From contig NZ_CP041186.1 in assembly GCF_006517175.1 (NCBI RefSeq), positions 5,483,074-5,547,073 on the forward strand: a stretch of DNA of 64,000 nucleotides, in the 5' to 3' direction. Both the position numbers and the translations under genes were made by a program. Positions 26,972 through 27,154 of the stretch are shown here, piece by piece. The notes under the pieces are model-generated. The model had not been told where the DNA came from, searched no databases, and saw nothing but the letters and a program-made list of their open reading frames with translations. This DNA comes from Persicimonas caeni. GTDB lineage: Bacteria > Myxococcota_A > Bradymonadia > Bradymonadales > Bradymonadaceae. Each line of letters opens with the position of its first letter. Position 1 is the first letter of the stretch.

Positions 26972-27154
26972 GATGAGAGGCTCGGGTCGGCCGCGTGCAA
27001 GTAAGCAGAACTGGTTGCACAACGGTGCCTTTTCCATTCGGCCACGCCTCCGTAAGTGGAGGCGGCAGGACTCGAACCTGCATCTACCGGCTTCGAAAGC
27101 CAATGTATGTAAGTTCTGCGGGTCGGGTCACGCGGCCGACCCGAGCCTCTCATC
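26972..27154 (-). ncRNA. Y-like RNA 1: circularly permuted tRNA-Ser mimic
   Basis: A perfect 26-bp terminal stem (26972-26997 with 27129-27154) encloses, in minus-strand order: an 8-bp stem strand (27112-27119, pairing with 27005-27012); a long variable-arm hairpin (27089-27101); a T arm (27065-27081, stem GCAGG/CCTGC, loop TTCGAGT); the 3' acceptor strand CGCCTCC (27058-27064); a 6-nt loop ACTTAC; the 5' acceptor strand GGAGGCG (27045-27051, 7/7 paired); TG; and a serine-type D arm GCCGAATGG..GGC (about 27026-27042). So the tRNA halves are swapped and the anticodon arm is replaced by the long stem. Bacterial Y RNAs that mimic tRNA are built this way, with the end-stem binding Ro. Confidence 0.85.

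What the first reader, a model, noticed from the sequence alone, without database searches (positions are those of the whole stretch)
26972..27154. Circularly permuted tRNA-Ser mimic closed by a perfect 26-bp stem
The 3' half of a serine-type tRNA (variable arm, T arm with TTCGAGT, acceptor CGCCTCC) precedes its 5' half (GGAGGCG, TG, D arm with GG), joined by ACTTAC; the anticodon arm is replaced by an 8-bp and a 26-bp stem. All acceptor and T-stem pairs are Watson-Crick. This is the topology reported for bacterial Y RNAs that mimic tRNA. A closer match to tRNA (7-bp acceptor, long variable arm) than I would expect for a mimic suggests it is recognised by tRNA-modifying enzymes.
Basis: partly seen in the sequence, partly recalled or inferred. 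Interest (0 to 1): 0.9.

Follow-up and report, generated by a model that had tools for sequence, protein, structure and literature searches.

The report
tRNA-mimicking Y RNA array beside Ro60
The odd inside-out tRNA is a small non-coding "Y RNA" encoded just before a gene for a divergent relative of the human Ro60 autoantigen; relatives in cyanobacteria, other phyla and giant phages carry whole arrays of such RNAs, each with a different tRNA-like head on one shared stem, which suggests a little-known RNA-protein machine built around tRNA mimicry.

Summary
The structure is real and lies on the minus strand (27154-26972). It is a bacterial Y RNA, not a tRNA gene. Directly downstream on the same strand lies a 475-aa protein whose AlphaFold model matches Ro60/Rsr structures (Foldseek E 4e-12; the 13 best PDB chains are all Ro60/Rsr/TROVE), although no Pfam TROVE match was seen. 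A covariance model built only from 39 units of other phyla finds it with 113 bits (E 1.6e-21 in the whole 8-Mb genome) and finds a second unit at 26944-26821. Across relatives 27 of 30 base pairs show double compensatory changes, including all seven acceptor pairs.

It is not a Ser tRNA with a long variable arm.

Beyond the window: 74 of 80 homologous Ro loci (Cyanobacteria, Planctomycetota, Chloroflexota, Acidobacteriota and others) carry such RNAs upstream, about four per locus; phage contigs carry them too. Heads differ (permuted tRNA, acceptor-less tRNA, plain loops) on one conserved stem. A ubiquitin-like and a ThiF/E1-like protein usually accompany them. Expression, Ro binding and function are untested.

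The parts
26972..27154 (-). Y RNA unit 1: type A, permuted tRNA mimic closed by a 26-bp stem
   Evidence: R3 (39 non-window units) 113.1 bits, 1.3e-23; folds
27129..27154 (-). 26-bp terminal stem, 5' strand (partner 26972-26997)
   Evidence: perfect WC; inner 8 bp covary in relatives
27112..27128 (-). 5' scaffold: CCCGAC internal-loop motif and 5' strand of the 8-bp upper stem
   Evidence: conserved CCCURAC and GAAAGC in A5
27087..27103 (-). anticodon arm of the mimic, TTGGC TTTCGAA GCCGG (UCG)
   Evidence: ARAGORN on the unrolled sequence; same geometry in a third of type A units
27065..27081 (-). T arm GCAGG TTCGAGT CCTGC (5-nt variable loop at 27082-27086)
   Evidence: T stem covaries
27045..27064 (-). 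7-bp acceptor stem capped by the loop ACTTAC
   Evidence: all 7 pairs have double compensatory changes
27027..27042 (-). D arm GCC GAATGGAAAA GGC
   Evidence: D stem pairs in 96% of cells
26998..27012 (-). 3' scaffold: upper-stem 3' strand AGTTCTGC and TTACTTG motif
   Evidence: ACUUG nearly invariant in A5
26816..26949 (-). Y RNA unit 2: same scaffold, T arm, reduced head (TGG + hairpin + T arm)
   Evidence: R3 50.3 bits 1.6e-9, R2 50.3 bits 4.9e-10
25270..26697 (-). divergent Ro60 protein (TROVE-like helical domain + vWA), 475 aa
   Evidence: AF2 pLDDT 88; Foldseek top 13 all Ro60/Rsr/TROVE, 4e-12
27212..27412 (-). C66: 66-aa ubiquitin-like beta-grasp protein ending in an invariant Gly
24401..25252 (-). 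X342: conserved cassette protein of unknown fold; the listed ORF starts at 25429, the likely start is 25252
23752..24399 (-). ThiF/E1-like adenylating enzyme
   Evidence: Pfam ThiF 4e-28
27455..27498 (-). terminator-like hairpin + U run that ends the upstream transcription unit
   Evidence: sequence; sub-threshold RybB terminator match

Best explanation
The locus encodes a Ro60 ribonucleoprotein cassette: C66 (ubiquitin-like) - two Y RNAs - divergent Ro60 - X342 - ThiF/E1. The element is Y RNA 1. Shown by sequence, covariation and synteny: a scaffold (lower stem, CCCGAC/ACUUG internal loop, upper stem) common to all units and tightly linked to the Ro gene, topped by a complete class-I tRNA that is circularly permuted at 26|27 with its acceptor end capped by a 6-nt loop. 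Inferred: the cassette is transcribed together; the scaffold stem is bound and protected by the Ro ring; the capped head cannot be aminoacylated or translated but presents the tRNA elbow, anticodon arm and acceptor helix, so it works as an adaptor that brings tRNA-acting enzymes (modification enzymes, PNPase or other RNases, repair enzymes) to Ro-bound RNA and/or as a bait for them. Arrays in relatives supply several non-redundant heads for the same Ro. Likelihoods: Y RNA identity about 0.9; adaptor role (RYPER-like recruitment or quality control) about 0.45; decoy for tRNA-cutting or tRNA-modifying toxins about 0.3; mainly cis-regulation of the Ro gene about 0.1; something else 0.15.
For: Ro fold of the adjacent protein. 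Homologues of that protein at 46-63% identity over the whole length in many phyla, with T-arm units upstream on the gene strand: 169 against 1 on the other strand; model R3: 314 hits at E<=1e-4 in 80 loci, every listed one on the Ro strand, 74 of 80 loci hit. Independent model hits in the window and, full length and significant, only there in the genome. Type A pairs: 95.6% paired, 27/30 with double changes, 0/500 shuffles, slid controls 36-51% paired. Type B pairs: 96.4%, 25/34 (80). Heads keep tRNA logic: 64/87 type B units have a 5/5 anticodon stem against 8.6% in shuffles, U33 in 61/64 of these; all acceptors distinct in 20/20 loci with two or more type A heads. Conserved Ubl and E1 neighbours. 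Precedent: YrlA tRNA mimicry, DusA/TruB modification and RYPER (PMC8394870); Ro operon induced by damaged tRNAs (PMC7790460).
Against: No expression, binding or processing data. The first T-arm scan required acceptor pairing, so its counts are biased (the CM counts are less so, but R3 was built from such units). Rfam's YrlA model aligns only the tRNA core and stays below its cut-off (27.4 against 69 bits). Pfam TROVE does not match the protein. Some homologous loci have few or degenerate units (6/80 without a hit, three of them cut off within about 330 nt of the gene).
Confidence: 0.88

Rival explanations
1. A true circularly permuted tRNA gene, as in red algae and some archaea, that is processed into a working tRNA-Arg(UCG).
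For: 3' half precedes 5' half and the unrolled sequence is a complete tRNA.
Against: The genome already has ordinary tRNA-Arg(TCG), ACG, TCT and CCT genes. Capping loops in homologues are mostly 4-8 nt, 13 of 65 are tetraloops and only 5 contain CCA, leaving no room for normal 5'/3' end processing. Sister units in the same arrays lack an acceptor stem or any tRNA head. The unit is tied to Ro, not to tRNA operons.
Confidence: 0.03
2. A decoy panel: the tRNA heads soak up anticodon nucleases or other tRNA-directed toxins, and Ro/Ubl/E1 deal with what is caught.
For: Non-redundant heads and 25 different anticodons; phage-labelled contigs carry the cassette; some cassettes adjoin ~20-31-gene tRNA arrays, and such an array in Anabaena is induced by translational stress (PMC10272220); competitive inhibition of an anticodon nuclease was proposed for YrlA (PMC7790460).
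Against: Many type A heads have no intact anticodon loop, and some units have no tRNA head at all. No PADLOC defence model matches Ro, X342 or C66.
Confidence: 0.3
3. A cis-acting leader: Ro binds its own mRNA at these stems and represses or stabilises it.
For: Units lie between C66 and Ro on the same strand; tRNA-less mini-units sit just before the Ro start codon in many cyanobacteria.
Against: Does not explain tRNA heads, arrays of several units or head diversity; in the window unit 2 ends about 120 nt from the Ro start.
Confidence: 0.1
4. A chance inverted repeat, terminator or mobile-element end.
For: A perfect 26-bp inverted repeat exists.
Against: Shuffle z -10.2, independent CM hit 1.6e-21, covariation (79), conserved synteny (90).
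Confidence: 0.01

Closest known systems
YrlA-type bacterial Y RNA (Rfam RF02553; structure 6CU1)
   Same: Long stem from paired ends, head with T, acceptor and D arms in permuted order, encoded beside a Ro60 gene.
   Different: Only the tRNA core aligns, below the curated score; this head also has an anticodon arm; arrays of several head types; other cassette genes (Ubl, E1) in place of the rtcBA reported beside Rsr.
Ro60 / Rsr proteins (TROVE + vWA)
   Same: Fold of the adjacent protein.
   Different: About 15-19% identity to solved Ro60 structures; no Pfam TROVE match; own clade of ~475 aa conserved across phyla.
Rot/TROVE with a 'tRNA-like partner' in RNA-repair systems (Burroughs & Aravind 2016, cited in PMC7824862)
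   Same: Ro-type protein thought to work with a tRNA-like RNA; phage-borne cases known.
   Different: The 2016 paper itself was not available; arrays with interchangeable heads, type B topology and the Ubl/E1 pair could not be compared with it.
Circularly permuted tRNA genes (red algae, archaea)
   Same: Order of halves.
   Different: No maturation signals, capped acceptor, Ro scaffold, host has the normal tRNA.
PRTRC cassettes (ThiF-related)
   Same: ThiF-like E1 with a small partner protein.
   Different: PRTRC_ThiF only 39 bits against a cut-off of 144.75; no PRTRC B or C match.

Membership tests
bacterial Y RNA | encoded beside a Ro60 orthologue | tested here: met
   Ro fold; synteny in 74/80 loci
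bacterial Y RNA | stem of paired 5' and 3' ends that binds Ro60 | tested here: inconclusive
   stem present and covarying; binding not testable here
bacterial Y RNA | tRNA-like domain with D, T and acceptor arms | tested here: met
bacterial Y RNA | substrate of DusA/TruB | not testable with these tools
   needs modification mapping
Rfam YrlA (RF02553) | score at or above the gathering threshold of 69 bits | tested here: not met
   27.4 bits, tRNA core only; 12 homologous loci also without a match
circularly permuted tRNA gene | 3' half before 5' half, complete tRNA when unrolled | tested here: met
circularly permuted tRNA gene | intervening sequence that allows end processing and CCA | tested here: not met
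   6-nt loop here; 13/65 homologues with tetraloops, 5/65 with CCA
Ro60/Rsr protein | TROVE HEAT-like ring + vWA fold | tested here: met
   AF2 + Foldseek
Ro60/Rsr protein | Pfam TROVE match; vWA_Ro60 above cut-off | tested here: not met
   no TROVE, vWA_Ro60 20.3 against 27.7 bits
ubiquitin-like protein / E1 pair (C66 + ThiF) | beta-grasp fold, C-terminal Gly, E1-like partner | tested here: met
   ubiquitin rows at Z 4-5 (a modest score), invariant G66 (38), ThiF 4e-28 (25); conjugation untested
PRTRC system | PRTRC ThiF, B and C above cut-off | tested here: not met

The most novel reading that the evidence does not exclude
A horizontally mobile RNA-protein system in which one Ro60 ring is served by an array of Y RNAs with interchangeable, non-redundant tRNA-mimic heads, with the Ro stem grafted at different points of the tRNA (acceptor end, anticodon loop, the 26|27 junction, and the variable loop in related loci), coupled to a ubiquitin-like/E1 pair. 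It would act as a displayed tRNA repertoire to sense, bait or repair tRNA damage, and be shared by multicellular bacteria and jumbo phages.
Probability: 0.4. Interest if true: 0.92.

Novelty: new variant of a known kind. Interest (0 to 1): 0.8.

Why it matters
Bacterial Y RNAs are known as single tRNA mimics with a partial tRNA fold and few studied functions. Here the mimic is a whole tRNA, the units come in arrays of different heads on one scaffold, and they travel with a Ro60 that profile libraries miss and with a ubiquitin-like/E1 pair. That makes the question 'why do Y RNAs look like tRNAs?' directly testable: head diversity predicts which tRNA enzymes are recruited or baited. It also means that some 'tRNA genes' called in cyanobacteria and phages are really Y RNAs, and that Ro60 is more widespread than Pfam shows.

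Tried and rejected
Rejected: working permuted tRNA gene; chance repeat; Ser-type class II mimic; recent copy of a host tRNA (best host tRNAs match only about 49-56 of 73 positions); PRTRC cassette; a PADLOC-listed defence system for Ro, X342 or C66 (97; only the ThiF protein resembles E1-E2 models). The sigma-70 scan gave only weak sites.

Full report
WHAT IS THERE. Inside it lie a 9-nt 5' internal loop with CCCGAC, an 8-bp stem GCAGAACT/AGTTCTGC, a hairpin, a T arm, an acceptor stem CGCCTCC/GGAGGCG closed by ACTTAC, a D arm and a 3' ACTTG motif. The fold is far more stable than shuffles (z -10.2 on the minus strand). At gathering thresholds ARAGORN and Rfam see nothing in the window. Below threshold the best RNA-gene match in the region is YrlA (27.4 bits, cut-off 69), and only for the tRNA-like core.

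Joining the two halves at the capped acceptor (5' half GGAGGCG...GGCA, 3' half TTGGC...CTCCA) gives a 73-nt tRNA that ARAGORN calls Arg(UCG), with anticodon arm TTGGC-TTTCGAA-GCCGG and a 5-nt variable loop. The 'variable arm' is therefore an anticodon arm and the mimic is class I. The permutation point is between positions 26 and 27. Among 66 type A units including the window, about a third have such an anticodon-arm hairpin (at least 4 pairs and U33, mostly with a 5-nt variable loop; two units have a class-II variable arm). In 38 units a 5/5 pairing across the junction is possible, that is, an anticodon stem with its loop replaced by the Ro stem; this second count is permissive because several register choices were allowed.

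THE NEIGHBOURHOOD. Immediately downstream on the same strand lies a 475-aa protein (26697-25270). Sequence libraries say only 'weak vWA_Ro60' (20.3 bits, cut-off 27.7). The AlphaFold model (33 homologues, pLDDT 88) hits human Ro60 (9nen, 4.3e-12), Xenopus Ro with RNA (1yvp), Deinococcus Rsr (2nvo, 1.5e-10), a TROVE domain (9kop) and the phage phiLo Ro60; the first 13 PDB chains are all of this kind. Upstream lies C66 (27412-27212), whose model is a ubiquitin-like beta-grasp (ubiquitin rows at Z 4-5, a modest score) with an invariant C-terminal glycine. Downstream follow X342, of unknown fold, and a ThiF/E1-like protein (Pfam 4e-28). C66, Ro, X342 and ThiF recur together in Cyanobacteria, Acidobacteriota and Chloroflexota; the Planctomycete loci (L077, L079, L081, L083) show Ro and RNAs but no detectable C66, X342 or ThiF in the DNA held. 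Close homologues of this Ro (46-63% identity over the whole length) are cross-phylum, while the searched genomes of the same bacterial family have none of that similarity, which suggests horizontal transfer.

ARRAYS IN RELATIVES. Upstream of the Ro gene in 80 homologous loci a T-arm scan gave 169 units on the gene strand and 1 on the other. Model R3, built from 39 type A units without any window sequence, finds 314 matches at E<=1e-4 in these loci; every one of the 300 listed is on the Ro strand, and 74 of 80 loci have at least one (my count). Three of the six loci without a match (L035, L043, L066) are cut off within about 330 nt upstream of the gene. All units share the scaffold CGCGC-CCURAC-n-GAAAGC-UUACAnAC ... 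GCUUUC-n-YAACUUG-CGCG. Heads differ. Type A: permuted tRNA. Type B: tRNA in normal order whose acceptor is replaced by the scaffold (ACAUAC/GUAUG); ARAGORN and Rfam call several of these tRNA genes. Type C: reduced heads with a TGG, a hairpin and a T arm (window unit 2 fits here). Mini-units: no tRNA head. In type B 64/87 have a perfect 5-bp anticodon stem (8.6% in shuffles), U33 in 61 of 64, and 25 different anticodons; in all 20 loci with two or more type A heads all acceptor sequences differ.

COVARIATION. Type A (40 units, A5): 95.6% of cells paired (36-51% when slid), 27/30 pairs with changes on both sides (shuffles 18.8), all seven acceptor pairs, four of five T-stem pairs and all but one of the scaffold pairs. 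Type B (38 units, A4): 96.4%, 25/34. The acceptor test has a bias because the first scan asked for at least 6/7 acceptor pairs; the scaffold stems were not selected that way.

THE WINDOW UNITS TESTED INDEPENDENTLY. R3 scores unit 1 at 113.1 bits (1.3e-23) and unit 2 (26944-26821) at 50.3 bits (1.6e-9); the type B model R2 finds both too. In the whole 8.05-Mb genome these are the only full-length significant R3 matches; the others are partial (canonical tRNAs) apart from one full-length match at E 3.9.

NOT A TRNA GENE. The genome has 56 ordinary tRNA matches including Arg(TCG), Arg(ACG), Arg(TCT) and Arg(CCT). Capping loops in homologues are often tetraloops and rarely hold CCA.

PHAGE AND PLASMID COPIES. 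A 595-kb uncultured phage record and three IMG/VR contigs (37, 98 and 390 kb) carry the Ro homologue and several units, some with C66, X342 and ThiF. Three cassettes adjoin arrays of about 20-31 tRNA genes (Laspinema, a Pyrinomonadaceae MAG, the Kovacikia plasmid).

HOW IT MOST LIKELY WORKS. From established Ro biology (PMC4726728, PMC8394870, PMC7790460): the scaffold stem binds the outside of the Ro ring, the head hangs free, and the complex handles structured or damaged RNA together with nucleases such as PNPase. The conserved ACUUG strand resembles the Ro-binding strand of vertebrate Y RNAs as I remember it (a lead, not a test). The heads keep the tRNA elbow and usually the anticodon stem but have no free 3' end, so they can be recognised yet not charged. 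I think an adaptor role is most likely, a toxin decoy second, cis-regulation third. The Ubl/E1 pair suggests protein tagging or sulfur transfer as an extra step. Every step after 'RNA beside Ro with a conserved scaffold' is inference.

NOVELTY. tRNA-mimicking Y RNAs are known; a complete permuted tRNA head, arrays with interchangeable heads, the type B topology and the Ubl/E1 link were not found in the papers I could read, but key papers were not held, so I file it as a new variant of a known kind.

Noticed in passing
L144 (G004:C35:8000-15500), 2647-2782 and 2804-2933 (+): A sibling system in another genome of the same family: an array of permuted tRNA mimics with a different scaffold (GGCTATG..GCTTCCTTCT ... 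CTTCCCACC), followed by a 703-aa protein of no Pfam family, not Ro-like by sequence; a copy of scaffold and protein also occurs in L146.
   Followed up: partly
L005:174-307 and 442-574, L003:510-647, L004:3290-3155(-): Upstream of other divergent Ro-like/vWA proteins of the same class: complete tRNAs with a free acceptor and a ~60-nt insert in the variable loop (motif CNTACANGC), a fourth way of grafting a Y-type stem on a tRNA.
   Followed up: partly
L051, L067, L138: The Ro/Y RNA cassette lies next to large arrays of about 20-31 tRNA genes of nearly all amino acids (chromosome or plasmid).
   Followed up: partly
L134, L135, L136, L137: Phage-labelled contigs, among them a 595-kb phage record, carry the Ro gene, Y RNA arrays and often C66, X342 and ThiF.
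   Followed up: partly
L013:4865-4938, L037:4900-4972, L016:4808-4887 and others: Mini-units with the Ro scaffold but no tRNA head sit directly before the Ro start codon in many cyanobacteria; possible autoregulation.
   Followed up: no
L011:4118-4190, L036:3181-3255, L040:2143-2214 and others: ARAGORN and Rfam call type B Y RNAs tRNA genes, so cyanobacterial tRNA annotation may hold false genes.
   Followed up: partly
window 24401-25252 (-): X342 family: ~275-330 aa, strongly conserved C-terminus SAGICLSGRDRDFDLQSLVGVVE, no meaningful match in Pfam or NCBIfam; seen only in this cassette here.
   Followed up: no
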